A stretch of 64,000 bases of DNA. It comes from Norana najaformis (Eukaryota > Annelida > Clitellata > Crassiclitellata > Hormogastridae). The DNA lies in NCBI GenBank assembly GCA_964023275.1, contig OZ029916.1, positions 13,322,607 to 13,386,606 on the forward strand, in the 5' to 3' direction. The translations under genes were made by a program, and so were the position numbers. Shown in pieces: positions 18,059-53,699 of this stretch (within the stretch, counting starts at the first letter, position 1; every line of letters begins with the position of its first letter). The notes beneath the pieces are model-generated. The model saw only the letters and a program-made list of their open reading frames with translations. It made no database searches and was not told the DNA's origin.

Positions 18059-20472
18059 CACTGGATCACACGAAAAAATTTTTCGCCTGCTACTAGGCAT
18101 ATGTTATGTGTACTACACTAAATCGAATCTGCTGAGTCCAAATCTGAAGTCAGATTTTGTGTAGCACGTCAGGATCTTAAGATATGCAGCATACATGCTA
18201 ATAATTATGCAAACTCTTTACAGAACTAGTATTTCCTTATAACTGTGTAATTATGCAAACTCAGAGTATTCATAACAAGAAACAAAATGTTATTCTTTTA
18301 TAACTTGAAATTAAAATATGTTTTAAAATGTAATATAAATATATGTATGTTACTCAGATGAAAGCATACATTTCAAAATTTTGTCTCTAGCTTAACTCTA
18401 TACGAGTTCAAAAGTGCTTTAGACACTTGCTGTTGCGCTTGTGAGTGGCCGCTGTTGCCCGCTGCAGAAACCAGCAGTAATCACCCATCATGTTGGAATT
18501 GCAGTGGCCCTGATATCTTGCTTCAAAGGTGGAGATGTCTTGATGGAATCTCTCTCCATGCTCATCGCTTACATCACCCAAGTTTGGTGGGAAAAAATCC
18601 AGATGGGAATGTAAGAAATGTATTTTTAGTGACATCCGGCAGCCGAGTTGCTTATATGCTGTTAGCATGTTGCTAACGAGTTCAGCATAGTTCTCAGCTC
18701 GGTGATTCCCAAGGAAGTTTTGCACCACCAACGTATATGCATCCCAAGCGGCAAATTCCAGTGGGTTGAGCTTGGTTCTAAATACAGTATCACGCATTAG
18801 TTCGCGGATTTCTGGCCCAATAAAAATTCCAGCCTTCAGCTTAGCATCAGTTTTGACGGCTCCAAATTTATCTCTCAGATACTGGAAGCCTTGTCCAGTA
18901 CGATCCATTGCCACTACAAAATTCCTCATGAGGCCCAGTTTAATGTGAAGTGGTGGTAAGTACACTTTCAATGGATCAACCAATGGTTCGTGTTGCACGT
19001 TGTGCCGACCAACAATGTGCTGAGATCTAGGAGGCCACAGTTTCACTTTGTAATGGTTGCTGTCATCACGACTGTGCCACAAGCACAAAAAGCACATATG
19101 TTTTGTGTACCCCAGCTGTAGGCCTAGAATAAGTGCTACCACTTTGAGGTCCGCACAGATGTTCCATTTGTGGTCTGAGTAGTTGATCACTTTCAAAATG
19201 AGTTTCATTGAATCATATGTCTCTTTGAGGCCTACAGCGTGGGCTATAGGAACAGACGGCTTTTCGTTACCATTGTGCACCAACACAGCTTTCAAGCTCT
19301 CTTGGCTGGAATCTATGAACAGTCTCCACTGATCAGGAACGTATTCGCAACCTAAATTCAGCATGAGACCGTTCACGTCAGTACAGAAACAGATATCATT
19401 TTCCAGTTTGTAATATGTAGCTAACTGTTTGTGACGATAACGGAAGTGTGATGTTGTGGTACCTTTTTGAAGCAAGTTCCACTCCCCTAGTCTGGAGGCT
19501 AACAGTTCAGATTGCTCCTTTGACAAAGATAGGTCCCTCACCAGATCATCTAACTCACCTTGCCTTATCAAATGCGGCCTACCCTCTTCCAAATCTTGAT
19601 CACTGGATTCATAAACAGTAACGTCATCTTCTGTATTACCATCAGAACTGTCCGTTTCATCAGCACCCGCAGCAGGCGGAAATGATACTGGATTCTCTTC
19701 ATCATGCGGCACTGGCTTTAGAGCGGACTCGCAATCAGGATAAACGATTTTAGACTTATTTTTCTTTGAAAATCCAGCAACTTTAATAATGCAGAAATAA
19801 CAGTCTGCATGATGATTTCTTGGCTCGCGCCACACCATAGGCACAGCAAACGGCATTGAATTCCTTTTGCCATTCAGCCACTGTGTAAGCCCAGAGTAGC
19901 ACACGGTGCAGCAGACATGAGGTGCCCAACTTTTATCCTGGTCTCCGATTTGACATCCAAAATAATACTTGAAAGCAATCATCACTCCCTTAGTTAACTT
20001 CTTGCGCTGGTCACAAAGAGTATATTTACCACAAACATAGCAAAAATTGTCTGGATGGTTAACACAGCCTCGCGTATTCATTTCAAAATTAAATCTCACA
20101 CACTAGCTACGGCTATATAAGAAAACTTCACCTTCGTTCTACGCAATCTCGCCTTATATACTGGTATTGATGCTGACGACAGCTCGCTGACGTGCCCATT
20201 CATATCTAGCGGCTGCTGCAGTCTTGCTGTTAGGAATATTTCAGGCGACACTTGCAGGCATGCACGTATCACTGGCAGCAATCGTGGAGACACATACAAC
20301 AGAATGTACAGACATAACCGAAAACGAGTCCTTACGTCATTACTTGAATGCATGCATAACTTAAAATCTAGACGTGCTGGGCAGATTCTGACTTCATATT
20401 TGGAATCAGCACATTTGAATCAATATAAGGCACATGCATTACTTTCATTAGCAAAATCGTTGTGATCCAGTG
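18059..20472 (-). mobile_element. complete 2.4-kb DNA transposon with CACTG termini
   Basis: The two ends are inverted repeats. Both start with CACTGGATCACA (18059-18070 and the reverse complement of 20461-20472, 12 of 12 identical). About 60 bp inside, both carry CTGA-TCCAAAT-TGAAGTCAGA ... AGCACGTC ... TTAAG-TATGCA at roughly 80% identity. The trinucleotide TTA lies directly outside each end (18056-18058 and 20473-20475) and is a candidate target duplication. One intact ORF sits inside on the minus strand. CACTG termini with 3-bp duplications resemble the CMC group (CACTA/Mirage/Chapaev). The assignment to that group is inference. Confidence 0.75.
18408..20081 (-). CDS. uncharacterised transposon-encoded protein, putative transposase (557 aa)
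   Basis: This is an uninterrupted 557-residue frame. I start it at the first ATG (MNTRGCVNHPD) because the longer open frame begins with GTG. The N-terminal 100 residues carry three Cys pairs (CYVC 14-17, CCTVC 57-61, CYFC 94-97) around conserved-looking Trp and Pro residues, suggesting zinc binding. The centre has FIDSSQESLKAVLVHNGN and ADLKVVALILGLQLGYTKHMC followed by FLCLWHSRDD. The C-terminal part has HGERFHQDI. From memory, this protein family is present in many copies and described as uncharacterised in arthropods, Hydra and other invertebrates. The spaced Asp, Asp and Glu residues with an intervening CxxC could be an RNase H-fold DDE centre, but that is inference. The ORF lies between the terminal inverted repeats of the 18059-20472 element, which supports a transposase role. 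Confidence 0.8.
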   Translation of the reverse strand: MNTRGCVNHPDNFCYVCGKYTLCDQRKKLTKGVMIAFKYYFGCQIGDQDKSWAPHVCCTVCYSGLTQWLNGKRNSMPFAVPMVWREPRNHHADCYFCIIKVAGFSKKNKSKIVYPDCESALKPVPHDEENPVSFPPAAGADETDSSDGNTEDDVTVYESSDQDLEEGRPHLIRQGELDDLVRDLSLSKEQSELLASRLGEWNLLQKGTTTSHFRYRHKQLATYYKLENDICFCTDVNGLMLNLGCEYVPDQWRLFIDSSQESLKAVLVHNGNEKPSVPIAHAVGLKETYDSMKLILKVINYSDHKWNICADLKVVALILGLQLGYTKHMCFLCLWHSRDDSNHYKVKLWPPRSQHIVGRHNVQHEPLVDPLKVYLPPLHIKLGLMRNFVVAMDRTGQGFQYLRDKFGAVKTDAKLKAGIFIGPEIRELMRDTVFRTKLNPLEFAAWDAYTLVVQNFLGNHRAENYAELVSNMLTAYKQLGCRMSLKIHFLHSHLDFFPPNLGDVSDEHGERFHQDISTFEARYQGHCNSNMMGDYCWFLQRATAATHKRNSKCLKHF

Positions 20473-21227: not shown

Positions 21228-21333
21228 ATGTCAAACAAAATGAGCCGATCATCCCAGCAGACAACTCATTTCAGTTCTACTGCGACCAGGCCAAATCTGA
21301 CACAGTCGACTTCAGCCTGTGCTTCTCAGCCCG
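21228..21333 (+). CDS. TICAM-like: TICAM-like exon 1
   Basis: Starts at ATG (MSNKMSRSSQQ) with an in-frame TAG 12 nt upstream. Ends CAGCCCG before gtaatc, leaving one base of a split Gly codon. Ser/Thr/Gln-rich, no domain. Confidence 0.6.
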
Positions 21334-24300
21334 GTAATCACAGCTATAGTTCTTGACTGAGAAGAGTCATCAAAGTTGGAACTTGATTAATTACACATTC
21401 TTTTGGATGCTGAGTCTGTCGTGTCAGGTTCCTACCACACGCGAACTGATAAATGGTTGCATATAACTGGGTCCTCACTGTAGTAAAATTTACTATATTT
21501 GTAAAAACTTCATGCATCAATAGTATTACATTGTGCCTATCTAAATCTGACATAGCTGCAAAATGCTTGTTCTGTTTTTGTTTAAATATTTGAGTCTGAA
21601 TGTCTGTTTTTACAGGTGCTGTCTTTACACGTGTCATACCATCATCTATAAAATGCCCAGGTGTTCAGGGTAAGCCGATGGAAAACAGTTTTTTTAGTGT
21701 TGCTTGCGGCTGTTTCACTCATATAGTCGAACTTGTTTAGTGACTACGTTTTCGTGTGTTAATATTACTGTCTATTCCCTGTGGGTTATTCAGAACTTTC
21801 AATTTTTGGATATACTTTTGTGTATATATCAAGCGAACATACTTGATGGCTGATGTTTTGCTTGACAGTTGGAAGGGACAGTGGACTGGGATCAGCAGTC
21901 ACCACAGAGTTGGCCAGTATCAAGATGAATGAGTCAGTTCATCATCTGCTCAGCAATTCCGGCAGTTCTGGTTCCTCAGCCTCTTTGTCTTGTGAGGAAC
22001 ACTATCATACTGTGGTGGAATTGCCATTGCAGATTGAGACAGGAACCCAGTCTGTGTCTGGTCGTCTGTCAGAGCACCAGTCCATTGCAAAAAGTTCATT
22101 GACCAGTTCACTATCAGTGGCAGAACCTCTGCCTGTTCTGAAGTCTGTGCCAGTTCATCAGTTTGTGGCAGAAAAACAGTCTTTGATGTCAGAACAACTG
22201 TTTTCAGTATCCAGTCAGATAGACAGCGAAGGTTCAGCAAGAGCATCAACAAGTTCACTAAAATATCCCACCCAGGTTGCTTCTGCATCAGACATGTGTG
22301 GTTCCCTACCTGACAACTTATGGACTTTTTCAGTTCCATTAGCCTCCAATTTTTCTCTGGAGGCTGCTCCTTCAGATGCTGATTTGGAGCCATATAAAGA
22401 TGAATTAGACGAGATTGTTATTCTTCCTTATGAGTATAAGGAAGAATTCAAGGAGGGTCAGTTTGATATTGTCTTGGTATACAGTGAGACAGATCGTGAT
22501 GAGGCTTTAGCTTTCCGGGAAATTTTGATAAAGTTTATATCTCTATGTGATCGTAAACCTCCGGCAATCTGTGTGCTCGATCAGAATGCACATTTGAGTT
22601 ATATCAACTCTAGGTTCTCACACATGGAAGAGGCTCTTCGACGCAGTACATATATGTTTCTGTTTCTTACAAAAGAGTTTTGTGGGGACAGTTGGGCACA
22701 GCTGCAGAGGGATGAATGTCTGATGGAGTCCATCCATAATCCAGAGAAGAAATGGTGTGTTGTTCCAATTCTAACAAAGTCACGAAGAGAGGCCAACTAT
22801 CAGTTACCATTTGGCTTGAGAGCTTTGAAAGGAGTTGAAATCTCGCATATGCTTCGTGGGAAAACGTTGAATTCTGTGGATGTAAATGCCTTGGAACCAA
22901 AGGATGTTGATCCTTTCTTTCTGAAGAACATGACAAAGATGTTGAATGATAGAATTTATTTGAAGATACAGCGAGAAAAGCAACAACTTGTCGATTTTCA
23001 GAATTGGTTAAAGGAGGAAAAGCACAGAAGATGGAAGAAGCTGCAAATGGAAAAGCTTGAAAAGGAACTGAAAGAGCTGAAACATATCAGGGAAAGACAA
23101 AATCTGCAAAAAGAACTTGAACATCGCAAAACACAAGAAATAATGGTAGCAAAAGCAGAAGCAGCAAATGTGGCAGAAAAAGAAGCAGCTGAATGCATCC
23201 GCCAACTGAGGATAATTGAAGAAGCAAGAAATTCTGAAAGGTTACAACCGGCAGTTCACAATCTGGTTCCTAAGACAGGGCTTATGGGTAAGCAAGTGGC
23301 AACCAAAGAAGCAACAACTGTTGAATATCATCATCATTATTATGGTCCAGTAAGTCAGGGTCCAGCGGAACAGACAGTCTACAAAATTTATGGTCCAGTA
23401 TCAGACTCGCAGATCGGCCGTGGAAATGTTCAACAAAGGGAAAAGGTATTTTATCAGACATCTGCGTTATTTGCTTTTAATTGCTTTGCCAGTTTAGTTT
23501 TCAGTTATTATAGAGTTACACCATTGACCCATTATAATGTGCTCATGAGTTCTGTTATGGTCATAGTCATGGCTCCTAAATTTTGTATGAAAAACATTAA
23601 TTTCTATCACAGTATGTGGTAGCATTCAGTTGTTCTCACTACATCAGACCCTCCTTTCATTACAATACTAATTCTGATGCAAGATGGTCAGAATAGGGAT
23701 CCCAAAGTTAGCGGAGCATACACAATGACCTCTTCATAACACACTCGTCCTTGATATGGTCCCCAAAGGCACTATTAAAAGGATGTTCAGGTGTATTAGA
23801 AAATGATGTTGGCAACATATCAGACGCTTTTACCAAAGATGAATTTGTTGACATATTCAGATGCTTTTACAAAGTATTTTCTTATTTTGTGCATTTTATG
23901 GATAATAATGTTCTAGCATAGTTGTGCATTTTGATTGTGTTATGGTATGCAATTATGAATTTCTGTTAAAGGAAATCTCTGATCATGTGTTACTGGATGA
24001 AACAAATCTGGAGACAGATGCACCAGAATCCATAGAATACATTGTTGAAACTGAGGAGGCTGCCACTCCTTTCCAACAGGGTTCACTTTTATTAACCTCT
24101 AACTTTCTGCATATTTCTTTGCTGTATTTCATTTGCTTGGGAACATCGGCAGTATATGTGCACATAGTCAGTTTAATCTTCTGTAGCAGTGCATTTGTTA
24201 ACGTGCCAGATGTCCATCAGTTGAGCGAGGAATCGTAGGCGAAAAACCTTCTGATGCTTTCGGATAAGTATTTATGGCTGGGCACTATCTGAATGGTTGA

Positions 24301-27300
24301 TGAAAAACAGTTTCTGAAGTCAAGACTGTTAAACTTACATGAAGGTCTTCAGGTAGCACTGTGACACAGAACTTTTCATGTGAAAATCATGAATTTCTCG
24401 TGAAAGCCAATAACTGAACTGATATACTCTGTACTTCAAGGCACTTTGATTTTCCTAACAAAGGAAGATGGGATTTAGAAACTCCTTAGTTCTTTGAAGC
24501 TTTTGTGGCTGATGTGAATTTCTTTTTCATTACAGCCCACATTGCAGGCAGGAAACCAACAGACTTCATATGACAGTTTTTTGAAGTTTAATTGTAACAA
24601 GAATTTCTAGATAAGCTTGCATTAAGTACACCTTCTGTCTGTGTAGAGAAGCTTTTACACAGCTAACTTCTATACCAGTGTATCCTGAGTAAGACTGAAC
24701 TTCTGCAACTGTACAATATGGTTATGTATTCAAAGAGGGCCCACATAGATGGTGCTACAGTAGTCAATCCTACTACAGATGAGCAGGTTTCTGTGAGCTG
24801 CAGAACTCTATTGTAATTAGTAACTTCTGTCGTGCTGGTGTCTAATGCACAAGGCATCAACCAGTGGCACACTGAAGCAAAGTCGCAATCTGGTCAATAT
24901 CCAGAAGGTCAGTCCACTGTACCTGAGAGGCAGCCTGTGGTGTATAAGCAGTTTGAATAATAATCAAGTTCAGAGTGAAATGACACAAGCAGTTGAGGAG
25001 AATGAACAGACGCAGGGAGAGAGCTCCAAAATCTGGGTCCAGCAACCAAAAAAGCCCATTCACCACAAACAGTTCTAGTTCTAGGTATTAGCAGAGAAAG
25101 ACAATAGGAGGACCTGGTTGAATATTGATAAGACTGGGAATGAGGACTGATTTTAAGTATTTTGGTTGGCCAAAGTTCAGAGTTTTATAAACTATAGGCC
25201 CCAATTTGAAACAAATTCTTTGCTGAACGAGGAAGCCACCAGTGTAACGATTTAAGCACAGTGGTTATATGCTCATATTTTGATGTATTAGTTATAGGTC
25301 TAGCCAAGAAGTTCAGTGTTTTATAAACTATAAGCCGCAATTTAAAACAAATTATTTGCTGAATGCAGAAACCAGTGCAAAGATTTAAGCACAGATTGTA
25401 TGGATTTACCAAAAATATCCTTGGAGTCATTGGGACATGACACGTAATACTGCTGATGATGATGAGTTCTCTGCCTGAAGGCAGGTCCATTGGCTTTATG
25501 CCACCCAGGGATGAGATGAGTGAGGTGGTATCGCGTTGCCTTCCTTACAGACAATTGTGGGTGAACAACTTGTCCAAGGTCACTACGCAGTGGCTTGATT
25601 TAGATTCAAACCCTTGACCTGATGCACCTGATGCAATTTCATTTTCAGAGAGATTCTTTTTGTCATCTGAAGCAAGTACAGTGTCCAATTAAACAAATTA
25701 ATGCTCCCGTAGCATTTAAAATGTTGCTATATACCAAGGGGAAGGTTGAAAAATCTACATTTTCATTCAATTTAATGAGAATGCAGTGAAAATAAACTGT
25801 GTGTACTGGTTCAGTCATTTTAAGGCATGGGTGAGTGCTTGAGAACTATGGCTCTATGGTTTGTGCAGGCCTGTGGGGGGTTACATGTGTGTGGGCTATA
25901 CCACACTGTGTTACATGTTTTCCTAATCACTGAGTTATATGCCTGCATGAATTACACTCATGTGCAGGTTATGTGCATGAAAATGTGGTATTACGTGATT
26001 CACATAATGGATTTTGTGACCTTACTAGCTTAGATAAATTACTGCTGTTTTTTCTGCAAAGCAGAACTTGAGGTAACAGACATTTTGGCATTGATTAATT
26101 CTGTGAAAGTCTTCATAAAACTGGGTTTCTACTGGTTTGGGTCATAGATCCGTGTGCTTTTGCAGATGCTAGCCTTGAGACTTCACCTGTCAGTAGGTCT
26201 GATTCGCTGGCTGCTGAACCTGATCATCCATTAGAAGGGATGGCTGAACAAAAAAGAACTGCAGTTTTGTAAGTATCAGCAGTGTCATATAGTTGGCCAT
26301 CGTACATAATTGAGTTATCAGATAAGTTTACCATATGCTATTTAATTAAAATTTTACCTGTTGTGCTGCTTAGAAATGGCCAACATTCTCAAGATTTGTG
26401 CTTATAATTGTAATTGTAATTTGAGATTTATAAAGCGCCTCTTAGAGGATAAACTCAACAGAGGTGCTTCTGACCCGAAAAAGTAAAATCACTGTTGAAC
26501 AGTACAGTCTTCAGGCGCCTGCGGATTTAGACTAAATCTATAGAACTATATTTTATACTTGGTTTAGCAGTCACTGTGATTCATGACACAATGTTTTTCT
26601 TAAAGTGAAACGCATGGACTTTCACAGAATTATCAATTTTATCTTGTTGCTCCACAAGTAAACATAGATTTCATTGTAGGATGTTATTTTTATTTGATTC
26701 AAATCCAAAAATTTAGCATACAGTCTAGTTGTAATGTTAAAAGTTTGAAAACGTCATCTTCTTCTTTCTTCTTCTTATTATTATTGTTGTTATTATTATT
26801 ACTATTATTACTATTATTATTATTATATTTATGGAATGGTGTTTTGAAATGGCCAGTTTTCGCTGCTATCTGAGTTTGACAATGTCCCTTGAAGGGTAAT
26901 CGCGTTGAAGCACTGGATGGCCATGGAAACAGAAATAAGGTATTTCCGTTGTCACCAGTTGTTGGGCCAAATGTCTACCAAGACTGTTGAAAGCAATGCC
27001 ATCTTGATTGATGAGACAAAGTTTTGAAGGCCAAGGGAATGAAGCAGTAAGCTGGCAAGATATCATATTTAGGTACCTTTCTTTGGGGTGCGTTCTCAGC
27101 AGAAGCACCAGCCTCTAGCAAAATCTGCCAGGGTGCTATTAACTGTTTCATCACAGGCAAGGCACCTGCGTCTCTCCAAAGGAATAATTATTGTGCCCTT
27201 AAGGTGCCTTCTATTAGACCTTGTAAGCCCAACTGGCTCCTTAGATGACACCTTGACTCTGGAATGATCTCTCTCCTGAATTTTGCAAAATCTCCTTTCC

Positions 27301-30300
27301 TTCACCCCTCCCATGGTTAACTACGATGATCTGCCTCAAGCCTCTTCATCTGTTATTCCTCAGGCTTATCATTTGAAACTAAAGCCCTACCTTTACAAGA
27401 AATCTTACCCTGATCCATCCAATCCATTTCTGTCAATCTAAACACAACCCCCATAACAGCTCCTCTGCATGCTCTCTCTGGCCTTGTGGCAACCGGATTT
27501 TGTTCTTCACATGATATCTCAGGAAACCCCCTGACTTTATGTAGCACTCGTGAATAAGCTGTTGCCCTGTACTTAGCTTTAAAGTGGTGCATTAGAATTC
27601 TCGAGGTGACGATTACGATTAAGATGACACCCAAGCCTCTAGATGGCCAACTTCATTATACAAGCTGCAGCAAGGGGGTCATTTGTGAGGCAATGCATAT
27701 AGGCCTAGGTATTGTTAGTATGTATTTGGCTCAAAACTCCACAAGAGGTCAGGACAATGGTGATATGAGGTGTATGTATAATTTATGATAATGGATTGAA
27801 TACTGTATTTTATGGCAAGCCCAAGGGAGTGGCAGCCCAGCAGAACTAAGTCAAGTCAGAGACAGTAGCACTTATTATTTAGTATTGTAAGGTAAAGTAA
27901 GGTCGATGGCAGTCACAAGACTGGATGACTGCACATGTTCAGCAGCCATGTGGCCATGCTTTTCACCGCTTGTCATTTTGGATAAAATTTCGTCTTAAAA
28001 CAAAAATATTTGTTTGGAAATTCTTTTGGGTTCGGACTGCTGTTGTGATCAACTTGACATTAAGATGTTTTTTAGAGGAGTTCATTATGGTTTTTAGTTT
28101 TCAGACAGTTTTTCTGTTCATTATTGACTCCCCTTCCCGTTGGAATAGCTCATTGTGTACTCAAGAGATGACATGCCATGCCTAACGCTTTAGAATTGTT
28201 TCGACCATCTAGCAAGGAATGACAGATTGCAACTAACACCTAACGCTTTGGAATTGCTTCGACCGTCTAGCAGAGGGGGGTCCTACCATCAATCAAATGG
28301 CTGTCCATGATGGATCAACTGAGTGCTCGAGTTACACCTGGAAAGCCACCTGCAAGGGACGGCATTGGACAATGGGGCTCTCGTGTACTGCGGACGCCAT
28401 CGCCCATCGTCGTTCTACAACTCTGACACTACTCGGTTCACAAACTCTGAACACACTGTCATCAGTTAACTCGCCAGTTGGTTGGGTTCAGCTTGTCTGT
28501 GCAAGTCCACTACTGGTGACATTTCTAATTAATTATCTGAACATTGCTTGCTAAATGACTGGATTTTTGTTCTTAATGACACTTGACACCATTTAAACTA
28601 GCGCAGGAAGCGCCTTTGCGAGATACTGAAAAGGTGCTATATCAAGTTTCTTAATACATACATACAAGATATTGTTCAACACTGGATACTATTAAGAAGG
28701 AGCCATACTAGTTGCGAAGATAACCAGTAACACCAAATTGAGACAGAGATGCTGTAGAATAGTATATCGTGGTCAGCAGTGTCCCATGTTACACTGATAT
28801 CAAACAGGTAAGAGAATAACCAGAGCTCTGTCTCAGGCCTCATATAGATCCCAGAACAGGCATACCAGGATTGTCTCAACTGAATAATTTTTCTAGAAAC
28901 CTGATGACCTTCTTTAGAATTGTTTGACAACTTTTATAGTTACCCTCCTTTTTCATAGCACTTTCAGCACTGGTCAGCATTTCATCATATAGTCAGTTAT
29001 CACTCACATGCACAACTAGTAGGTTTGTAGGCTTTAAGAAAGACCTGTTTACTCTCTGTTGTGGCACTTTGAACACACAGTGCTTGGGAAGCAAACGGTT
29101 GGCCTGCAATCCAGTGGGGATGGTCTGAAAGCAGTGATGGGAAAATTTTCCTTTCCCCACAAAACTGCACACAGGTTCTTTTATTCACAAATGTGTCAAA
29201 TAACATGAATCTTTATCTCTCTCTTGGATGAAAGGGGTGGTGTTGGTGATGGTGGCTAGGCCACGGTCTGACAGAGCTGCAGATCCACCATGATGCAGTT
29301 GTCCATAGTCATAACAACATCAAGCCAGCCTTCAGGCTTTTATGTAGACTCGGCTGTGTGCTGGACCAGACCAAATTGCACAAGAATACAACAGATCTGT
29401 CTGCCACACTTCAGGCAGGGTCTGGTCCTCTAGATGGATATTGAGGTTACCAGTAATGAATAGCTGGGTGTTGTATATGGCGAACTGTTCCCACAGGAGG
29501 AAAGTTAGCCAAAAAAAAGACGGACGTTAAATGACCAGTAGTCAGTGGAACATGAGGCAAGGAAAAGGTCATGCAGGCTGCTCAAAACATGTTGGTGCCC
29601 AGTTTAGATTGATCTTTCTAATCCAGAGAGTTTCCCTCTAGAAAATTAATGCACCTGTTCGTGGCAGTCTGGAAAGATGGCATCAGACTGTCCAGCAATG
29701 TATAATATAAGGCCCCAATTGACAGACGGACACATCTGATGATGGACAGCAGGTGCTACTGCTTTGTCCACAATGAAAGTATTGGCCACTGCGGCATACC
29801 TTTTTCTCAAGAAACGAATATTCCTTGGAGCTAGATGTACTACAGAAGAAGCAGCAGCAGCATGCATAGAGGCATCAGCTAAGGGTGTCAGTGAAGAAAA
29901 TGGCAGCTTGGATTGACAAGCAGCCAAAGGGTACCACAGCCGGGGACAAACAGCATTTTCTTTATTTTCTTTATAGCATGCCTCTGCATAACATGCATTT
30001 GACATCATAGGTGCCAATGGCAATGCTTTCTACTGCTCCATGGATATTTTCTCTACCAGTGTATCATGTTGCTGCATACTGAGTATATAGGCATGTTTCT
30101 AGCATCATTCCAATTATATCTAAGCCTCATCTTATCCATGGAGATGATGTTTTTATTCTTCATGGCCTGAAAAACAGCCATCAATAAATGCATGGGATCA
30201 ACTGCTTAAAAAGTTTCCAGAAATCAAGATTGTTCATCACCTAAAGTAAATGTAAATGTGCATGATTTTCTAGAGCAACTGTATGTGCTGACCACTGGTT

Positions 30301-33274
30301 CTGATTTAGGGAGCAATTATACATAGGATCGCAAAGCCTTTAGGCAATGTGCTGAAGCAGCCAAAATGGCTATCTCAATCCTACAGATGACCAAGAGGAC
30401 CACAGTTAGCAGAATAATACTGAGGTTGTACAAATCATTTACATTTACTTTTGGCCTTGGAATCCATGTCTGAAACATAACATAGAATAACTGGAGATAG
30501 TTTAGGGGAAAGTTACCAAAATGATTTGGGGTTATTAGGATCTGAGCTATGAAGAAAGGTCGAAAAGGTGTGGGTTAACAACATTGGAAAAATGAGGAGC
30601 AGAGAAGACCAGATTGAAGCTTACAAGAAGATTTTCACCAAGAAGGAGGCAATGCAAGGTTCTCGAGTAGCATGAAACAAGGCAACCCAAGGCCACAGAT
30701 ATAAATTATTTAAGAAACTGACAGGAGCATTAGGGTAGAAGTTCTTCAGTGCAAGACTTGTACACTTGTGGAATGGTTTGGATGATACCGCTGTCTCAAA
30801 GGACACTATTACAGCTTTAAGTGGAAGCTAGGAAGAATTGGCTTTTGAACATACTCAGGAATTTGCAGTGGTTCTAACACATGTTAAATGTCTTTTAAAC
30901 CACTTAAGACCCATGCTGTGTTATTTTATTGTACTGAAAGAAAGATTTTCCTGCATCCATTTGCATCGACAGAAGGATCTGCCGGTGAACACAAATCTTG
31001 GTTTCAGTGCTTGGTAGAAAGCAGTGCTAGTATAATAGGCATTTACTCTTTGGGGGCTAAAAAGCCTTTTCACAAAACGTGGGTTCTTGAATTTAATCGT
31101 CCGAGGAACAGTGAGACGTAACAAGCGATCATTTCTTCACAAGTATGTTAACAAGTATAATACATTGCATTTACAGCACACCAGAGTCATCGATTTGCTT
31201 CGGCTTAATCATCTCACGTGGGACCTGTTTATGAGATGCACTAACAATTATTTCCGCTGCTGTCCAGGACGTCCATCACGTTCGGCCATTAGTTAGCGAA
31301 TTTGCCTTTCTTGCTTCACCCCTGTCCCATCTTTAGCTTCCACTTGCCAATCATTCATTTATGCCCTGTTGTTAACACATTTGACATTTGTTAACACACC
31401 ATATGTCCATCGGCTGAGCGAGGAATCGTAGGCGATTCCCTGTTCTCACAGTCCTTCCATCCCGCCTTTCTCTCTGTATCTCACTTCACATCCGCCTGTT
31501 ACTCTTCCATCGTTTGCCCCTTTCACGCACATTAGGCATGTTGCTCTTAATGTTAGTCCTGCCTACCACATTAATAGTATAGTTCTTTACATGTTAAACA
31601 CAGTAACATTCCTAAACTAAACAGCAACCTCTACATTTATGTTAAAACTAATATCATTGTCTGTGCAAAGTTTCACTACAGTTATGTTATTTAGTGCACT
31701 ATAGATCTGGCTTTGCATTTGCCTAAAAAGTTACTAGCAAAAATTAATTGTTTGCTTCTTCTAAACCCCAGTTTTGTAGATTTCACAAATGAGCTTTTCC
31801 CCAATAATGTTTTGTCTAATCATATTCATTTCTCCAGAACTCTGTAGACCAATTTATTTATCATTGTGTTTGAGTTAAAATTAGGTATTCATTTGTCTAC
31901 AAAATACCATGCAGCAGCATTACATTTACTTGCAGGGGCAGAGTTACCCGGGGCATGGGCCCAATTCTGCCACACTGTAGAAGGGACCCTCATGGAGTGT
32001 GAAAAATTATGAAAAGTTCCATTTGTGAATTTCGTCAGGGAATATGTTAAGTTATGCTGTGAATGTATGAAGGCAGCATCTTTAGTTGAACAATATTGAC
32101 AGAAGTGGTTGCTTCTTAAAAACGGATATTTTTGCTTGAAATTCCTGTTACATGGTAACATTTGTTTAGATGACAGTGCACCAGATGTGGGAAAGCGCAC
32201 TCTGTGGGCCATTGCCTGGCCATGCACCAAGCTGTGATGTAGAATATTTGTTACAAGCACAATGCAGTTGGTGATATATGTACTGTATGTCTGAATAAAT
32301 TTTTTAGGTCTTCTGCTACTGGTCAAGCCTTGGCTCTGTCGTCATCTCCTAAATCAATGCATCTGGAGAAAGATGAAATGACTGCTGGAGAAGAACAGTC
32401 CCCAGAAGTTGACCGTCCTCAGTCTCCGCCTGTGTTAAAGTTTGAACAGAGCATGCTTTCGCATTATTGGCAACCTCGTGGGACTGATTTAGCTGCTGGC
32501 AAAAGTGGTTCGGCTCTAGGTAACAGCAGGACTGCTCAAAGTCCAACATCATCTGGAACAAATATGGTGGATGCTGGTAATTCACTGCAAGGTATTACTA
32601 CATCAGGAAGCTTTTCAAATGATCCACCAGTGCGACCGATGGCAGCTGTTACTCCCATTCGTCAGAAATCATTACCAGAGCCAAATTTTGAGGAGGAGGG
32701 AGAGGAAAGGAGGCTGAAGTTGCCCTGTGATGGTGGGGAGGAGGAAGAAACTAAATTGAAATCTTCATATCTTGGAGAAAGTGCAAGTGTGAATGCAGAG
32801 ACAATTGTAAAACATACTGGCAGGGACTTTTGTGACAGAAAGAGGTTGACAATAGCTAATCAGCCTGTTACAAAAAACCAAGAGACTGTAATAGTTGCAA
32901 GACCGGAAGCTGGTTTGGAGCCAGTTTTAAAATCAGCTCGAGCGTGTACCAGCTCAGTGATGCTGGAAAAAATTGTAGAACAAGTTGAAGCACATCTGAA
33001 ACCAGGGGATGTCATGTGTGAAGTCCCAGGGAGGAATGATGTATCAGGCACTGAGCAGAAGTCCAAGCCTGAAGTTGCAGAAGGTTTTGCAGGAAGTTCA
33101 TCAGTAGATGTTGTACGGTCAAATAGTCAAAACTGTGATGAGAAACAGGTCAGCATAGGTAAGGACTGCAGTAACGAGAGTGTATTCTGCCACAGATCAC
33201 CTGATTCTACCGCTAGCCACAAAGCAACAGCCACCCCAGCTGCAGAGAACAAATCAACCTGCATGGTTTCATGA
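21228..33274 (+). CDS. TICAM-like: TICAM (TRIF/TRAM)-like TIR adaptor with RHIM-like motifs, six exons, about 971 aa
   Basis: Six exons (21228-21333, 21616-21669, 21869-23445, 23972-24080, 26166-26268, 32308-33274) join with compatible phases at all five junctions. The product has a Ser/Thr-rich N-terminus, a TIR domain at about 252-405 starting FDIVLVYSETDRDEALAF, and a BB-loop-like KPPAICVLD with prolines 284-285. Further TIR blocks are FLFLTKEFCGDSWAQLQ, CLMESIHN and WCVVPIL. This pattern is closest to TRIF/TRAM rather than MyD88 or TLR TIRs. A charged Lys/Glu coiled coil follows at about 422-512, then a RHIM-like block (VYKIYGPVSDSQIGRGN, core 567-570). The C-terminal 390 residues are acidic and low-complexity and end in CMVS. 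TRIF also has TIR followed by a C-terminal RHIM, which in vertebrates recruits RIP kinases downstream of TLRs. No death domain, transmembrane segment or kinase is seen. The junctions are predictions without transcript support. Confidence 0.75.
21616..21669 (+). CDS. TICAM-like: TICAM-like exon 2 (54 nt, symmetrical)
   Basis: The acceptor is tctgtttttacag and the donor is CAGG before gtaagc. It encodes AVFTRVIPSSIKCPGVQ plus split codons at both ends. Both splice phases are equal, so skipping this exon keeps the frame. It carries the first half of the VQVG core. Confidence 0.65.
21869..23445 (+). CDS. TICAM-like: TICAM-like exon 3: TIR domain, coiled coil, RHIM-like motif
   Basis: The acceptor is gttttgcttgacag and the donor is GAAAAG before gtattt. 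The open frame extends beyond the donor to a stop at 23620-23622, adding a hydrophobic tail if the intron is retained. That extension lacks domain features and is probably intronic. Confidence 0.85.
23972..24080 (+). CDS. TICAM-like: TICAM-like exon 4
   Basis: The acceptor is gaatttctgttaaag. The exon encodes EISDHVLLDETNLETDAP, an acidic stretch, then TPFQQ. The donor GG before gttcac is weak, but it is the one that leaves the single base needed by exon 5. A stronger-looking GT at 24152 would end in the wrong phase. Confidence 0.55.
24190..24240 (+). repeat. short direct repeat shared with 31.4 kb
   Basis: Contains atgtccatcagttgagcgag followed by gaatcgtaggcga. About 31381-31435 has nearly the same 45-50 bp in the same orientation. 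The family is unknown. Confidence 0.7.
24830..25400 (-). mobile_element. LINE 3' end, antisense, with an internal duplication
   Basis: It starts with the LINE tail words ggtgtctaatgcacaaggcatcaacc and gtcaatatccagaaggtcag. It then continues with two partial copies of a segment containing gttttataaactata ... tgaacgaggaagccaccagtg / tgaatgcagaaaccagtgc (about 25180-25255 and 25315-25390). The minus strand reads NTSKYEHITTVLKSLHW. The sense family copies are at about 41270-41640 and 52475-52980. Confidence 0.7.
25455..25640 (-). mobile_element. possible SINE/MIR-like fragment
   Basis: The stretch cttgtccaaggtcactacgcagtgg ... ttagattcaaaccc resembles the core and B-box-like end of MIR/L2-type short elements. 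The resemblance is from memory, the boundaries are not visible, and even the strand is uncertain. Confidence 0.3.
26166..26268 (+). CDS. TICAM-like: TICAM-like exon 5
   Basis: The acceptor is gtgcttttgcag and the donor is TTTT before gtaagt. Only one of the three frames is free of stops. It encodes ASLETSPVSRSDSLAAEPD and continues to KRTAV. That frame fits both neighbouring exons. Confidence 0.65.
26395..26545. repeat. dispersed repeat (LINE tail type) related to 52.75 kb
   Basis: It reads taattgtaatttgagatttataaagcgcc ... cagaggtgcttctgacccg ... acagtcttcaggcgc. The same arrangement (ttgtaaagcgccgcttcaag ... agaggcgctctcgtcccgg ... acggtcttcaagcgc) is at about 52748-52855. Confidence 0.7.
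26763..26832. repeat. TTA/TTC trinucleotide microsatellite
   Basis: Imperfect ttc then tta/act triplet run in intron 5 of the TICAM-like gene. Confidence 0.9.
26880..27630 (+). mobile_element. LINE C-terminus and 3' tail, sense copy in intron 5
   Basis: Near 27355-27420 the + strand reads PQAYHLKLKPYLYKKSYPDP, a typical end of CR1/L2-like ORF2. The sequence continues to gtgaataagctgttgccc ... attctcgaggtgacgattacgattaag, the GATTAC-type tail. Confidence 0.65.
28180..28330 (-). repeat. dispersed repeat related to 7.0 kb
   Basis: It contains two partial copies of ctaacgctttagaattgtttcgacc (near 28181 and 28233). Its reverse complement can be read as LMVGPPSARRSKQFQSVRC, matching the frame at 6949-7179. 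Confidence 0.55.
28560..30030 (-). mobile_element. LINE with endonuclease and RT remnants, antisense in intron 5
   Basis: In minus-strand order there is an N-terminal ORF at about 29646-30023. An endonuclease-like FITGNLNIHLEDQTLPE follows near 29410-29460, and an RT block reading LFDISVTWDTADHDILF lies near 28750-28810. The tail (aggtgctatatcaagt) is at about 28635. The Asn-Ile-His motif is characteristic of AP-endonuclease domains of CR1/jockey-like elements. The copy is decayed. Confidence 0.65.
30490..30835 (+). mobile_element. LINE polymerase C-terminal fragment, sense
   Basis: Broken + frames read YEERSKRCGLTTLEK-like, IEAYKKIFTKKEAMQG, HRYKLFKKLTGA and VHLWNGLDDTA. This matches the conserved end of CR1/Rex-type polymerases or related jockey-like elements. 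It differs in sequence from the GATTAC-tail family. Confidence 0.55.
31381..31435 (+). repeat. short direct repeat shared with 24.2 kb
   Basis: Contains atgtccatcggctgagcgag followed by gaatcgtaggcga, the partner of 24190-24240. Confidence 0.7.
32308..33274 (+). CDS. TICAM-like: TICAM-like exon 6: acidic tail ending in CMVS
   Basis: The acceptor is aataaattttttag. It encodes 321 residues rich in Ser, Glu and Pro with no recognised domain and a Glu-rich stretch (PNFEEEGEERR). The last codons give ENKSTCMVS then TGA, a match to the CaaX prenylation pattern. Confidence 0.65.
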
Positions 33275-42444: not shown

Positions 42445-45009
42445 TTATAGTTTCCACTTTGCCGAGTGTTTGAAGTTCGATGTAACGACGAAGGTTTTCA
42501 GGAATGCCCGTTGCGCCATATGGTCTGTATGCGTCTTCATGACGGCATTGGTGACTATGGTGTCAAGGTACTGCCCTGGGTCATGCATCATGGCGTCTTT
42601 CCATTCGGACTCGTCCTGTCCGCGGAATTCCTCTTTTATAATCCATACGATGTGCTCGATTATAGTCGGAAGGATCTGATCTTTAAGCTCAGTGTCTCCT
42701 TTCTGCATAATCTCGAGTTTTTTAGCCTCGTCCTTCCCGTCTTGTACAAGGTTTTTCAGTTTGTAGCGAATGGCCGTATAGAGACTCTGAACTACCTCGG
42801 AGGCAAAGCTCTTGAGAGTAGCTTCAGCCTCTGGATCCATCGTAGCCTGCTCTATTGTCTCCTCAAGATCTTCCCTATTCGAAAAGATGATGCTCTGAGA
42901 TCTTGTCGCCGCCTCCGAGTCTTTCTTATTCACTCCATCATTTCCAACTGATGCTTTTACAGTTTGACTATTATTTTCAGCTCTAGATTGTAGCTCGTGT
43001 TCCTTTCTTATAGATGTGGCACTGGGTTCCGAAGCAGACGGATGAGACGATGGCTGAGGACGAACAGAGCGATACTTGACCGCTTCAGTCTTTTCTACAT
43101 AGTCATTGTTGCGGAGGAGGAGGAGGGTCTGGTCGCCTTTAACCTGCTGCTGTCCTTCCACTCTTATATCTGAGGATTTTGCTTTTTCATTTGTACTCTG
43201 GACTTTGTCATTTTCTATTCCTTCTTCATCTTCGTCCTCTTCTTCGTTATCCTCACCGCCTTCTTCGTCATCTGCTGCATTATTTGCAGTAACAGAGTGA
43301 CCCGATTCACTGCTGCTTGCTTCTCGAATTTCGTCATCTTTAGCACTTGTAATATCACGTTCATTGTCGTCGGTCTTGTTGCTCTTTATTTCGTCGCTCA
43401 GGTTTCCATGACTTTTGTTCTGGTCTGAATCCAAACTTACGTCTGTTTTATTCTGGTTTATGTTCGGAATTGAGTTATCGTCGCCATTAGTTCTACCCTG
43501 CGCGCTCTTTGTGCAATTTTCCTGCTTATATGGCCTACTTCCGCTACGAAGATTCATTTTATCGTCAGATTTTCTCTGCGAAAGCGAGTTTCTATCACTC
43601 TTCGCCATCGTGGTCTGGATTTCCGACGGATTGTGGAGTTCCTGACATGTATCTTGTTCAGTGTTATCCTGCTGGTTTGCTGATCGACAGATGATTGACT
43701 GCATATCGATCTGATTAACCAATGTGTTCCTCTGGTCGTCGGCTTTCGATGATTGTTCCTTGGCGACACGCTTCTCAATCGCTTGGCAACTGAGGTGTTT
43801 GCTTTCACTCGCGTCGTCTCTGAGTTCTTCGTAGTCGTTTGTTGTGCACTTGCTTTGTACTGCGTGTTCTTTCGTTCCATGGCTACATTGCTGATGTTCG
43901 TTCACTGCACGGGGTTTGTGTTCTTCTTTCTCAGTCATTGCACATTCATGTTCTACAGTCCTAGGCTGAGTTCCTGAATCCAGGTGTAATTTAATCTTGC
44001 AAATGAGACTTTCGATTAGCTTGCCGGCCATCTGTCGCAGCTTGACCATAGACTGATTTTCTTCAACGCCAGATGGCGGTATGTTGTTCCAGAGTTTATT
44101 CCAGCAGCGCTCGGCGTCAGAGTGCGTCTGATGAGTGTGCTCCGCCTTCAGCACGTGGTGTTCCTCTGGAAGAAGAGCCGCAGACTTAAGCATACCGATT
44201 TCTTCGCCCACATTGTTACCCGTCTGAAACTCTGTCGCAATGTGAGCAATAGCCTCCTGAATGTTAACAGTGCTTTCGCTGCCCACTGGAACAGTGTCAA
44301 CGGAGCTACAGCCTCTGTCGTGTAGGTTAAACTGTAGTTCAGCGCAGTTGGCTGCTTGCCTTGAGCACTGGTACGGAAGAGTGGAGCACCAGACATCGAC
44401 ATCTGGCCTTAATTGTCCAGTCCCTCGTCTACAGTTCGCTCGAAACAACGAGAACCTAGCAGCGGGTTTTGTGGCTTCGTACTTGGTGCTTTCCATTGTG
44501 AGATTTTTGTGCATGTCTCTGTCGACTACCGTGCAGTACGAGTGGGATGAGGAGGACGAGGAGGTTCTGGAACTGATCGTTTTCAGAGGCCGACTGCTGT
44601 AGCTTCGAGACTGTACCGAAAACCTCGTCTGAATCGAAGGGCAACCACAGCCAGCAGACCTCATCACTCGCTTGACTGACTGAGCACAGGTTGTAAGATT
44701 ACCAGTGTTAGTTCCATTTGCATCCCATTTGCCTACGTCGCCTTTTATCGAATCCATTAGAAATCGACACGGTTGGATTCGGTTTCGTTTCGATTTCATG
44801 TCGGATAAAGCCGGACTAATTCCGGCCACGGATCTAAACTTGACCGCCGTCTGACTGCAGTTATCGGGTAACCAACATTCAAAAGCGCACTTTTTGCCGT
44901 CAGGTTTTCCATAAGTAGTTATTCGGGGATCTGTAGACATACGCGAACCTTTTGACGAACGGAATGGATCTGTATGCAAACGGGAATCCTGGCAGCTTCG
45001 AGAAATCAT
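42445..45009 (-). CDS. uncharacterised acidic single-exon protein (854 aa)
   Basis: A long uninterrupted minus-strand frame. The open frame runs four codons further upstream than its TTG end to a TGA, so I take the first ATG (MISRSCQDSRLH) as the start. Residues 1-200 are Ser/Arg/Cys-rich. The middle is hydrophilic with many Lys, Glu, Asn and Gln. Residues about 577-600 are strongly acidic (DDEEGGEDNEEEDEDEE). The last 140 residues look folded and helical, with EEATLKSF-like, VVQSLYTAIRYKLKNLV, IIEHIVWIIKEEF and QYLDTIVTNAVMKTHTDHM. No known family, signal peptide or transmembrane segment is recognised. Its length without stops in a decayed neighbourhood argues that it is a real gene. A retrogene or lineage-specific gene is possible. 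Base composition is richer in GC than the flanks. Confidence 0.7.
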   Translation of the reverse strand: MISRSCQDSRLHTDPFRSSKGSRMSTDPRITTYGKPDGKKCAFECWLPDNCSQTAVKFRSVAGISPALSDMKSKRNRIQPCRFLMDSIKGDVGKWDANGTNTGNLTTCAQSVKRVMRSAGCGCPSIQTRFSVQSRSYSSRPLKTISSRTSSSSSSHSYCTVVDRDMHKNLTMESTKYEATKPAARFSLFRANCRRGTGQLRPDVDVWCSTLPYQCSRQAANCAELQFNLHDRGCSSVDTVPVGSESTVNIQEAIAHIATEFQTGNNVGEEIGMLKSAALLPEEHHVLKAEHTHQTHSDAERCWNKLWNNIPPSGVEENQSMVKLRQMAGKLIESLICKIKLHLDSGTQPRTVEHECAMTEKEEHKPRAVNEHQQCSHGTKEHAVQSKCTTNDYEELRDDASESKHLSCQAIEKRVAKEQSSKADDQRNTLVNQIDMQSIICRSANQQDNTEQDTCQELHNPSEIQTTMAKSDRNSLSQRKSDDKMNLRSGSRPYKQENCTKSAQGRTNGDDNSIPNINQNKTDVSLDSDQNKSHGNLSDEIKSNKTDDNERDITSAKDDEIREASSSESGHSVTANNAADDEEGGEDNEEEDEDEEGIENDKVQSTNEKAKSSDIRVEGQQQVKGDQTLLLLRNNDYVEKTEAVKYRSVRPQPSSHPSASEPSATSIRKEHELQSRAENNSQTVKASVGNDGVNKKDSEAATRSQSIIFSNREDLEETIEQATMDPEAEATLKSFASEVVQSLYTAIRYKLKNLVQDGKDEAKKLEIMQKGDTELKDQILPTIIEHIVWIIKEEFRGQDESEWKDAMMHDPGQYLDTIVTNAVMKTHTDHMAQRAFLKTFVVTSNFKHSAKWKL

Positions 45010-45294
45010 TGAGCTGCTGTAGATTGTAATGTCTGTCTGTTGTACTTGATTCAACTCAGTGTTTCATCGGATAATCTTCTCGACTTGACGCACTTCTTTG
45101 CTGCTTGTTTCCTCTCGAAATTTACCTCAGACAATCGATAATCGGCGTTGACCTATGCAGTGGTCCTAAAACAGTAGAAGAACATTGGCAGTGTTTGGTA
45201 CCTTAACCGAATTCAACCAAACCATCGAAGTGGTCCTCAAGCTTCACTACATTGCTACCTTTGCTAGGCGACAAGAACAGGAACTAGCTTTTAG
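45010..45294. other. upstream region of the 854-aa gene
   Basis: Probable 5'UTR and promoter of the minus-strand gene. No TATA box or other element is clear to me. Confidence 0.35.
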
Positions 45295-50993: not shown

Positions 50994-52466
50994 CAGAGGC
51001 GAAAATCTCCACATAATTTTGGGGGATAGCGCCGAAATTGTTTTTGCAATTTTTGTTTGTAATGGGGGGACAGAAGGGGACAGTAAACATAAATGGGGGA
51101 CAGAGTCTACAGAAATAGGTCTATTCATAATTCATCAACTGCATGCAGATTACAGAGTTCATATGATGATAAGGGGTAAATATCTAGGTTCTAAGTAAAG
51201 GTTAAATAAGCCAAAACTGCTAATGACTTTTTAGTGAGAGACAACAAAGAGATGGCTTACTTTATACAATTTTCTACACATACTGTTGCAACTTGATTAA
51301 AGTGTTTGAACACTTTTATTCACAGTTGGTGAATAGGCGTAGTGCCAGTGAACATAAATATCATACATGGGGAGGTATGCAAAGATATTAGATCTTACAG
51401 TGGAACAAGAAATAAATGTGCAAACAATTAATCAATTTTATAAATTATGGGAGATGGGACTCAGTAATGGTAGGCCTATATGGGAACTTATATGTTGTAA
51501 TACTTACCCGATTTTTTCTTTTTGCTGGAACTGAAACTTAACAATGACTGTTCGAGATGTTTGATTGAAGCATTCTTCGAAGATGCATCAGAAGTAGAAG
51601 ACGTGGCTTGGAGCCTAGATCACTTAAACTATCGTTAACAAATAAACACGCAACAAGGTGCTACTACACTATGTGCCGAACTCTGAGACAAATAATAATA
51701 ATAATTAGCAACTTCTAATGCGCCGGTGTCTAATGCACAAGGCATCAACCGATGGCACACCAAAATCAAGCCGCAATCAGGTCGATATCCAGAAGGTCAG
51801 ATAGCAAGGAGTAGTAGTGAATAAAGACTATCTCAATAAATTCCTCAATAGCGTCTTGCTGATAGTGAAACCCGACACCCTTCGTCTTTCTATATTTATC
51901 CTCCCCTCTAGTCCTGGCTATTTTCCTCATACGGTGGTTCTTCGCTGCCTTACCGCACATTTAGCATTCTATATCGCTCTCCCTGTAGGCCTTTTGCGAT
52001 ACACGGTCTTATTTGGTCATCCTGATGTCGTGGCAGACTTCAGTAGCATTCCACCTTCTCTCATACATTGCAGCAGCATCCTCCCCTCACATTCCTGAGC
52101 TCCGCCATCTGTTCTACAGATCGCACTCTTCCTTCCAGCTCCCATCCTCGGGTGATCGCGTTGCCTTTGGGGTCATACCTCGCCGTGTCTTCATATCTGT
52201 GTGCCTCTGTCTATCTCCTTTCCGCTGTCTGTCGTCTTTTTGTCTTTGCAAGTGTCATGCCTACTTGTCTAAAAGTTCCTGTCTTTTATCATATAACTAA
52301 TTTAACTCTACAATACTTTAGGATAAAAGTTTAATGAAGCAGAGGGGACATTACTAGGTTTAGCACTGTCCCTCTCATTAGAAGTTTTAACTTTGGGGGG
52401 ATAATCCCCAGTCAAAACTTTGGGGAGGACAGTTCCCCTCTGTCCCCCCCATGATTAACGCCACTG
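50994..52466. mobile_element. hAT-type element with perfect 8-bp target duplication
   Basis: The element starts CAGAGGCG and ends CGCCACTG, short terminal inverted repeats with one mismatch. CATATAAC lies immediately outside on both sides (50986-50993 and 52467-52474), a perfect 8-bp duplication as produced by hAT transposases. Poly-G/poly-C runs sit near the two ends (gggggatagc, gtcccccccatg). Removing it rejoins the LINE frame. Inside are an antisense LINE tail (about 51690-51800) and a copy of the 47.1-kb dispersed repeat (about 51820-52100). I found no transposase frame. Confidence 0.88.
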
Positions 52467-52474
52467 CATATAAC

Positions 52475-53646: not shown

Positions 53647-53699
53647 AAACACCGGCAGTCTTGTTCTCGGTCGTAATCACTTATAATTTGATCTGATTG

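What the first reader, a model, noticed from the sequence alone, without database searches (positions are those of the whole stretch)
21228..33274. Invertebrate TIR adaptor with TRIF-like architecture (TIR, coiled coil, RHIM)
Seen directly: one open frame with TIR blocks (FDIVLVYSE, KPPAICVLD, FLFLTKEFCGDSW, WCVVPIL), a charged coiled coil and then VYKIYGPVSDSQIGRGN. Known: vertebrate TRIF (TICAM1) is a TIR adaptor with a C-terminal RHIM. Its TIR resembles this one more than MyD88 or TLR TIRs do (DEAL after the first strand, a KP BB loop, a Trp-x-x-x-Gln block). Inferred: this is a TICAM-family member, which would place TRIF-type TIR to RHIM signalling outside vertebrates. The SQIG core deviates from the usual V/I-Q-I/V-G at its first position.
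Basis: partly seen in the sequence, partly recalled or inferred. Interest (0 to 1): 0.88.

Follow-up and report, generated by a model that had tools for sequence, protein, structure and literature searches.

The report
Invertebrate TICAM-like immune adaptor gene
A gene in an unnamed invertebrate joins a signalling domain that most resembles the vertebrate antiviral adaptors TRAM and TRIF to a short motif resembling the amyloid-forming RHIM, and related proteins (one from an oyster) have the same layout, although several papers report that molluscs lack this adaptor family.

Summary
A six-exon gene (21228-33274, +; 971 aa) is supported by a homologous ORF on a 3,152-nt contig that matches the exons in order without introns. 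Its TIR scores best against human TICAM2 in 13 of 13 family members and groups with the TICAMs in nine of nine tree builds. Foldseek ranks TRIF and TRAM first, but a second aligner ties MyD88. After a long helix comes a segment, HHHYY...YKIYGPVSDSQIGRGN, whose core recurs in 10 of 12 homologs. A profile of that core ranks human RIPK3 RHIM first among 177,635 PDB sequences (E 0.086, not significant alone; 0 of 300 permuted profiles score as well). Pfam's RHIM model does not fire there. So it is RHIM-like, not a proven RHIM. No pLxIS motif or N-terminal TRIF domain was found; it is not TRIF itself. Papers seen as passages call TICAMs absent from oyster, sea hare and mussel (one weak mussel TRAM hit). 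Most likely it is a TICAM-clade scaffold linking Toll-type TIRs to RIP-type kinases. RHIM function is untested, and no invertebrate non-TICAM TIR was in the trees.

The parts
21228..21333 (+). exon 1, Ser/Thr-rich N-terminus, start ATG at 21228
21616..21669 (+). exon 2; its end with exon 3 encodes VQVG (strict RHIM tetrad) followed by DSGLGS
21869..23445 (+). exon 3: low-confidence N-region, TIR, long charged helix, HHHYY and RHIM-like motif
22459..22836 (+). TIR core (aa 251-376), TICAM-type
22954..23241 (+). predicted long charged helix (exon-3 residues 362-457)
23320..23433 (+). conserved segment VEYHHHYY...TVYKIYGPVSDSQIGRGNVQ (aa 538-575), RHIM-like core SQIG
23972..24080 (+). exon 4, acidic
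26166..26268 (+). exon 5
32308..33274 (+). exon 6, Ser/Glu-rich tail ending CMVS (CaaX-like) and stop

Best explanation
It is a cytosolic TIR adaptor of the TICAM clade with a diverged RHIM-like motif. Proposed working: on receptor activation the TIR docks on a Toll-type receptor TIR and polymerises, as the TRIF TIR does. The long helix spaces or multimerises the tails. The clustered RHIM-like motifs then nucleate a cross-beta assembly that recruits a RHIM-bearing RIP kinase and turns on NF-kB or cell death. Shown here: gene structure, TIR kinship (within the sampling), conservation of the motif, and its sequence likeness to RIPK3 RHIM. Inferred: polymerisation, receptor and RIPK partners, and outcome. 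IRF3-type interferon output is not expected, since no pLxIS motif is present.
For: TIR: phmmer of the exon-3 frame against the PDB gives 4 hits at E<=1, 3 of them TICAM2 chains (1.8e-5 to 5.4e-5). The family profile gives 8 hits at E<=10, the TIRs among them being three TICAM2 chains (best 4e-6) and TICAM1 (9.8). TICAM2 is the best of eight human TIRs for 13 of 13 members. Family and TICAMs form one side of a branch in 9 of 9 builds: 98/95; 93/91, 87/84 (built without TICAM1), 91/90 (without group B), 94/96 (group B only); 98/95, 99/96, 96/93, 97/95 (the first repeats the tree, so 8 are distinct). Foldseek ranks TRIF 1st and TRAM 2nd to 4th. Motif: a recognisable core in the window and 10 of 12 homologs; P0006 and P0012 lack it. 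A profile of 7 group-A motifs finds the same segment as best match after the TIR in 4 of 4 group-B proteins (shuffles reaching it 2, 2, 3, 18 of 2000). Conservation rises again at the motif (0.49 within group A, 0.27 between groups; linker before it 0.18, 0.07; 5 group-A and 3 group-B sequences used). Core profile: 3 of 5 PDB hits at E<=10, and the top three, are RIPK3 RHIM chains; permuted profiles reaching the score 0 of 300 for RIPK3. Published (PMC12119088 section 8): tetrads LQIG, CQIG and TQIG occur naturally in fish, amphibian or lamprey RIPK3; all variants tested there kept ZBP1-dependent death; zebra mussel RIPK1 C-terminus needs its RHIM for full NF-kB activity.
Against: Pfam RHIM does not score on the C-terminal motif (0 of 13; window fragment none). 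The RIPK3 match has E 0.086-0.12 and its three chains are one protein. The reverse motif test was weak: a group-B profile reached the core in 1 of 7 group-A proteins and otherwise met only the His/Tyr run (shuffles reaching it 3 to 582 of 2000). In group B the tetrad is VAIG, and N stands at +2 (3 of 4) not +3. For 7 of 13 members the second-best human TIR is TIRAP, not TICAM1, and the group-B profile is weaker on TICAM2 (E 0.0081). AU tests do not firmly reject family+TIRAP (0.068) or family+SARM1 (0.061). The leave-out builds have lower, unstarred TICAM support, three of the four with long-branch warnings. VIA-align ties TRAM 12.0, MyD88 11.8, TRIF 11.8, and in Foldseek MyD88 4eo7 has the higher TM-score by target (0.62; TRIF 0.56, TRAM 0.52-0.60). 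In the same paper TQIG lost NF-kB activation, and mutating the RHIM of human TRIF did not affect its NF-kB activation. No RIPK or TLR of this genome could be examined.
Confidence: 0.6

Rival explanations
1. An orphan invertebrate TIR adaptor (of the kind catalogued as 'ecTIR-DC') whose TIR resembles TICAM2 by retention of old features or by long-branch attraction; the tail motif is an unrelated conserved beta segment that binds something other than a RHIM.
For: ecTIR-DC families are widespread in invertebrates and unassigned (PMC6321704; PMC5549309; passages). AU p 0.061-0.068 for SARM1 and TIRAP placements. Pfam RHIM is silent on the motif.
Against: Nine of nine builds join TICAM. The PDB profile search, whose library also holds oyster TIR-STING and Hydra TRR-2 TIRs, returned only TICAM TIRs. 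RIPK3 is the top motif hit.
Confidence: 0.27
2. A sub-case of the best explanation: the TIR is TICAM-clade and the motif works as a RHIM, but the motif arose independently (convergent functional amyloid), so that TIR-to-RHIM architecture evolved twice.
For: Motif core differs from TRIF RHIM and drifts between groups; the profile's score on the recalled TRIF RHIM is low (3.6 bits), though only 1 of 300 permutations reaches it.
Against: Same order (TIR then motif) as TRIF; amphioxus TICAM is reported to use a RHIM with RIP (PMC6043800).
Confidence: 0.2
3. A NAD-cleaving TIR effector like SARM1, with the tail only for oligomerisation.
For: Some animal TIR domains are enzymes (SARM1); the family has an invariant Glu three residues further on (alignment).
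Against: Four residues after the alpha-C Trp, where SARM1 and TLR2 have Glu, the family has Gln (9) or Ser (4) of 13 (read by eye; the automatic alignment put SARM1 out of register). SARM1 scores worst of eight with the group-A and whole-family profiles.
Confidence: 0.05

Closest known systems
TICAM2 / TRAM (human)
   Same: closest TIR by sequence; DEAL, KP and Trp-x-x-x-Gln shared; no RDxxPG box 2
   Different: TRAM is TIR only (PMC9440496), without RHIM or long helix; this protein does not begin Met-Gly, so N-myristoylation is not expected; its tail ends in a CaaX-like CMVS instead
TICAM1 / TRIF (human)
   Same: order of parts: N-region, TIR, RHIM-like; top Foldseek hit
   Different: TIR less similar than TICAM2; no pLxIS motif, no Pfam match to an N-terminal TRIF domain; long helix between TIR and motif; acidic and Ser-rich tail after the motif
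amphioxus bbtTICAM
   Same: reported non-vertebrate TICAM that binds RIP through a RHIM (PMC6043800, passages)
   Different: chordate; sequence not available here. PMC9440496 (passages) reports RHIM not conserved in Leptocardii
RHIM of RIPK3
   Same: the core profile aligns without gaps to NIYNCSGVQVGDNN
   Different: first tetrad position S/L/A in group A instead of V/I, second Q/T/A; below Pfam's cut-off

Membership tests
TICAM clade (TIR level) | TIR nearer to a TICAM than to other adaptor and receptor TIRs | tested here: met
   (TICAM2 best in 13 of 13; second best is TIRAP in 7 of 13)
TICAM clade (TIR level) | one clade with TICAM1 and TICAM2 in a tree | tested here: met
   9 of 9 builds (8 distinct; one without TICAM1); human references only, long branches; AU does not firmly exclude TIRAP or SARM1
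TICAM clade (TIR level) | absence of the RDxxPG box 2 of MyD88/TLR TIRs | tested here: met
   alignment, by eye
TRIF (TICAM1) | N-terminal TRIF domain | tested here: not met
   no such Pfam match among 11 families found in 13 members at E<=5 nor in full-length P0011 at E<=10
TRIF (TICAM1) | pLxIS motif for IRF3 | tested here: not met
   no L.IS in the window protein and 12 homologs (several homologs are partial)
TRAM (TICAM2) | Met-Gly start for myristoylation | tested here: not met
   protein begins MSNKMS
RHIM | Pfam PF12721 above cut-off | tested here: not met
   0 of 13, window motif none; recalled RIPK1 and RIPK3 control stretches hit at 5.2e-5 and 1e-10
RHIM | tetrad V/I-Q-V/I-G | tested here: not met
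   C-terminal site is SQIG; relatives SQIG, LQIG, STIG, AQFG, VAIG. A strict VQVG lies at aa 52-55; a strict tetrad appears in 236 of 5000 shuffles
RHIM | profile likeness to known RHIMs | tested here: inconclusive
   RIPK3 ranks first of 177,635 PDB sequences but E 0.086; 0 of 300 permuted profiles reach it
RHIM | amyloid formation and RHIM-RHIM binding | not testable with these tools
   needs bench work
NADase TIR (SARM1-type) | catalytic Glu in alpha-C | tested here: inconclusive
   Gln or Ser at Trp+4 in 13 of 13 by eye; SARM1 not aligned in register

The most novel reading that the evidence does not exclude
TICAM-type adaptors with TIR-to-RHIM wiring predate chordates: the last common ancestor of molluscs and vertebrates had a TICAM that passed Toll-type signals to RIP kinases through an amyloid motif, and molluscs still use it. 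It would be the 'unknown adaptor' that the oyster literature suggests. An additional strict tetrad (VQVG) at the N-terminus may make it a two-RHIM scaffold.
Probability: 0.4. Interest if true: 0.85.

Novelty: new variant of a known kind. Interest (0 to 1): 0.74.

Why it matters
Papers seen here as passages state that TICAM1/2 are missing from C. gigas (PMC4346834), M. edulis apart from one weak TRAM hit (PMC3308963), S. glomerata (PMC4892480) and Aplysia (PMC9334734), and that the MyD88-independent branch or TRIF arose in chordates (PMC9334734, PMC6043800). PMC4892480 notes that downstream parts (TBK1, RIP1, IRF and others) are present and suggests an unknown adaptor. A TICAM-clade TIR protein with a RHIM-like motif, with a homolog in the oyster Saccostrea echinata, is a concrete, testable candidate for that adaptor, and would move the origin of TRIF-type signalling back before chordates.

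Tried and rejected
TIR-only AlphaFold model: mean pLDDT 61.7, with runs of 25 and 32 residues under 50; poorer than the TIR in the exon-3 model (ten-residue blocks 64-92 with one at 40), so it was not searched. VIA-align does not separate TRAM, MyD88 and TRIF, so it is not used for kinship. The 48-position motif profile against the PDB (116 matches at E<=10, 60 shown) was swamped by His-tags (first row E 0.0011 is a tag); RIPK3 was 8th at 0.081; hence the 23-position profile without the His run. A protein search with the TIR region alone gave 3 members, all known already. The first two protein searches scored only the 7998 and 7992 candidates sharing most words, so further relatives may have been missed. 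Own-genome search for TIR, RIPK or TLR genes could not be done (tool unreachable). The RPT and CBM_14 Pfam hits are weak and taken as chance. The coiled-coil label was tested by heptad contrast and not supported. DSGxxS is present only in 3 of 13 sequences, so it is not used. An earlier count said all homologs keep the motif; the recount is 10 of 12.

Paper coverage: 10 searches, listed of found: 6 of 6, 20 of 35, 25 of 62, 7 of 8, 15 of 205, 3 of 3, 15 of 415, 19 of 20, 10 of 12, 13 of 15. No title or abstract start in those listings describes a mollusc TICAM with RHIM. Papers were otherwise seen as an outline, single sections (first of two parts) or passages; none was read whole. The source paper of the ecTIR-DC families is known only through other papers and the amphioxus TICAM paper is not held, so an earlier description of this family under an orphan TIR name is possible.
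Full report
What is there. By splice sites and by comparison with P0011, the gene has six exons, 21228-21333, 21616-21669, 21869-23445, 23972-24080, 26166-26268 and 32308-33274, all with GT..AG, encoding 971 aa. P0011 is a 965-aa ORF on a 3,152-nt contig. It matches the exons in order with the introns gone: exons 3 to 6 strongly, the short exons 1 and 2 weakly on their own (E 0.16 and 0.12); 67.6% identity over 988 aligned positions. In this genome the same parts spread over 12 kb, so that contig is best read as a spliced transcript. The RHIM-like stretch is therefore in mRNA of a near relative.

Relatives. Three protein searches gave 12 homologs; the first two scored capped candidate lists. 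P0001-P0003 and P0011 are 71-78% identical to the exon-3 protein, P0004 49%, P0005 37%, P0006 32%, P0012 36%, and P0007-P0010 25-28%. Only P0010 has a named source, Saccostrea echinata (that this is an oyster is recalled). I call P0007-P0010 group B and the other eight, with the window, group A (the scripts call them bivalve and gastropod, which is my label only). The species of the window was not established.

TIR domain. Pfam TIR_2 is found weakly in 13 of 13 (best 2e-4, window 0.004, below the curated cut-off); Pfam TIR (PF01582) in none. Against the PDB the exon-3 frame hits only TICAM2 among TIRs (1.8e-5). The family profile hits TICAM2 (4e-6) and, without significance, TICAM1 (9.8), with no other TIR at E<=10. 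The library also holds human MyD88, TIRAP, TLRs and SARM1, oyster TIR-STING and Hydra TRR-2. Against eight human TIRs, TICAM2 is best for 13 of 13 members; the second is TIRAP in 7 and TICAM1 in 6. In the tree the family and TICAM1+TICAM2 share a branch at 98/95. Four leave-out builds keep it at 93/91, 87/84 (no TICAM1), 91/90 (no group B) and 94/96 (group B alone), not starred and with long-branch warnings in three. Four builds on other alignments and models give 96-99/93-96, one of which repeats the tree. AU tests reject family+TLR (0.018) and family+MyD88 (0.039), but only nearly family+SARM1 (0.061) and family+TIRAP (0.068). In the AlphaFold model the TIR's ten-residue pLDDT blocks are 64-92, with one loop at 40. 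Foldseek ranks TRIF first, TRAM second to fourth, MAL fifth, MyD88 sixth by E-value, though MyD88 has the higher TM-score by target; VIA-align ties TRAM, MyD88 and TRIF. Together this supports a TICAM-clade TIR nearer TRAM than TRIF, with the caveat that no invertebrate non-TICAM TIR could be put in the trees.

Helix. Residues 362-457 of the exon-3 protein are modelled as one helix. Heptad contrast is no better than in shuffles (206 of 300), so it may be a single charged helix rather than a coiled coil.

RHIM-like motif. After a poorly conserved linker comes VEYHHHYYGPVSQGPAEQTVYKIYGPVSDSQIGRGN. Group B has a similar His/Tyr run and then NYNI or NFNI, four residues, and NVAIG at the same place. 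Eleven of 13 sequences carry a recognisable core (window and 10 of 12 homologs); P0006 and P0012 do not. A profile of 7 group-A motifs finds the same segment as best match after the TIR in 4 of 4 group-B proteins (shuffles reaching it 2, 2, 3 and 18 of 2000); the reverse search reached the core in 1 of 7 and otherwise met only the His/Tyr run. Identity rises again at the motif (0.49 in group A, 0.27 between groups) from 0.18 and 0.07 in the linker before it (5 group-A and 3 group-B sequences). A 23-position profile of the core, searched against 177,635 PDB sequences, had five hits at E<=10, and the first three are human RIPK3 RHIM chains (0.086, 0.11, 0.12), aligned without gaps to NIYNCSGVQVGDNN (that these chains are human and span the RHIM is recalled). 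The E-values are not significant alone, and the three chains are one protein, but RHIM was the prediction beforehand. Column-permuted profiles reach the real score in 0 of 300 for RIPK3, 3 of 300 for recalled RIPK1 and 1 of 300 for recalled TRIF. Against this, Pfam's RHIM model, which finds the RIPK1 and RIPK3 controls, scores none of the family at this site. The first tetrad position is S, L or A in group A and V in group B, and the second is Q, T or A. LQIG, CQIG and TQIG occur naturally in RIPK3 of fish, amphibians or lamprey; [quoted passage not shown] So the motif is best called RHIM-like.

A second site. Exons 2 and 3 join to make CPGVQVGRDSGLGS (P0011: CRGVQIGRDSGLGS), a strict tetrad. 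Such a tetrad arises in 236 of 5000 shuffles of the protein, and Pfam RHIM touches only the P0011 version given as a fragment (E 0.13, below cut-off), not the window's. It is recorded as a lead.

What it lacks. No L.IS (pLxIS) in any of 13 sequences, no Pfam match to an N-terminal TRIF domain, no Met-Gly start. The protein ends CMVS (P0011 CTVS), a CaaX-like tail that could carry a lipid; this is inference from two sequences.

How it probably works. The TRIF TIR forms filaments (title of 9dk8). By likeness, this TIR would co-assemble with a Toll-type receptor TIR and bring the RHIM-like tails together, which could seed an amyloid with a RIP-type kinase. Mollusc RIPK1 with RHIM exists, and for zebra mussel RIPK1 C-terminus RHIM mutation attenuated or prevented NF-kB activation in HEK293T. 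In the same work mutating the RHIM of human TRIF did not affect its NF-kB activation, so cell death is as likely an output as NF-kB. Every step after 'TICAM-type TIR plus RHIM-like motif in one protein' is inferred.

Against what is known. Statements that TICAM1/2 or TRIF are absent: C. gigas (PMC4346834), M. edulis except one weak TRAM hit (PMC3308963), S. glomerata, with the suggestion of an unknown adaptor (PMC4892480), Aplysia (PMC9334734), placozoans (PMC6321704). TRIF-like TIRs were said to be limited to gnathostomes (PMC7075850). PMC3308963 also cites a claim of TRIF and TRAM in cnidaria, which, if right, would lessen the surprise. Amphioxus TICAM is the nearest described case (PMC6043800), while PMC9440496 finds RHIM not conserved there. 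The family could already be listed as an orphan ecTIR-DC family; its source paper was not seen.

Verdict. Real gene; TICAM-type TIR well supported with the sampling caveat; RHIM-like motif conserved and suggestive but not proven; not TRIF by its defining features.

Noticed in passing
23446-23622 (+), and P0001, P0002: Two homologs (P0001, P0002) read through the exon-3 donor into a hydrophobic peptide (VFYQISALFAF...) that matches the window's intron (VFYQTSALFAF...): retained intron, genomic contig or alternative C-terminus.
   Followed up: partly
33260-33274 (+): C-terminal CMVS (CTVS in P0011), a CaaX-like prenylation tail; not present in P0010.
   Followed up: partly
exon 2/3 junction, 21663-21894 (+): Strict RHIM tetrad VQVG shortly followed by DSGLGS, a beta-TrCP-degron-like string (label recalled).
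   Followed up: partly
P0010 residues 769-806: Saccostrea member has a weak UBA-like domain near its C-terminus (DUF1421 E 0.0043, below cut-off).
   Followed up: no
18411-20102 (-): 564-aa open frame without a Pfam match at E<=1.
   Followed up: no
42448-45063 (-): 872-aa open frame, rich in charged and Ser residues, no Pfam match at E<=0.01.
   Followed up: no
59032-60300 (-): 423-aa open frame, no Pfam match at E<=0.01.
   Followed up: no
1604-2107 (+): Fragment matching Pfam TNP-like GTP-binding insertion domain (E 2.1e-11), likely a transposase remnant.
   Followed up: no
53021-53714: Stretch open in all six frames, in a 2-kb block with GC skew -0.407 (52001-54000): probably simple-sequence repeat.
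   Followed up: no
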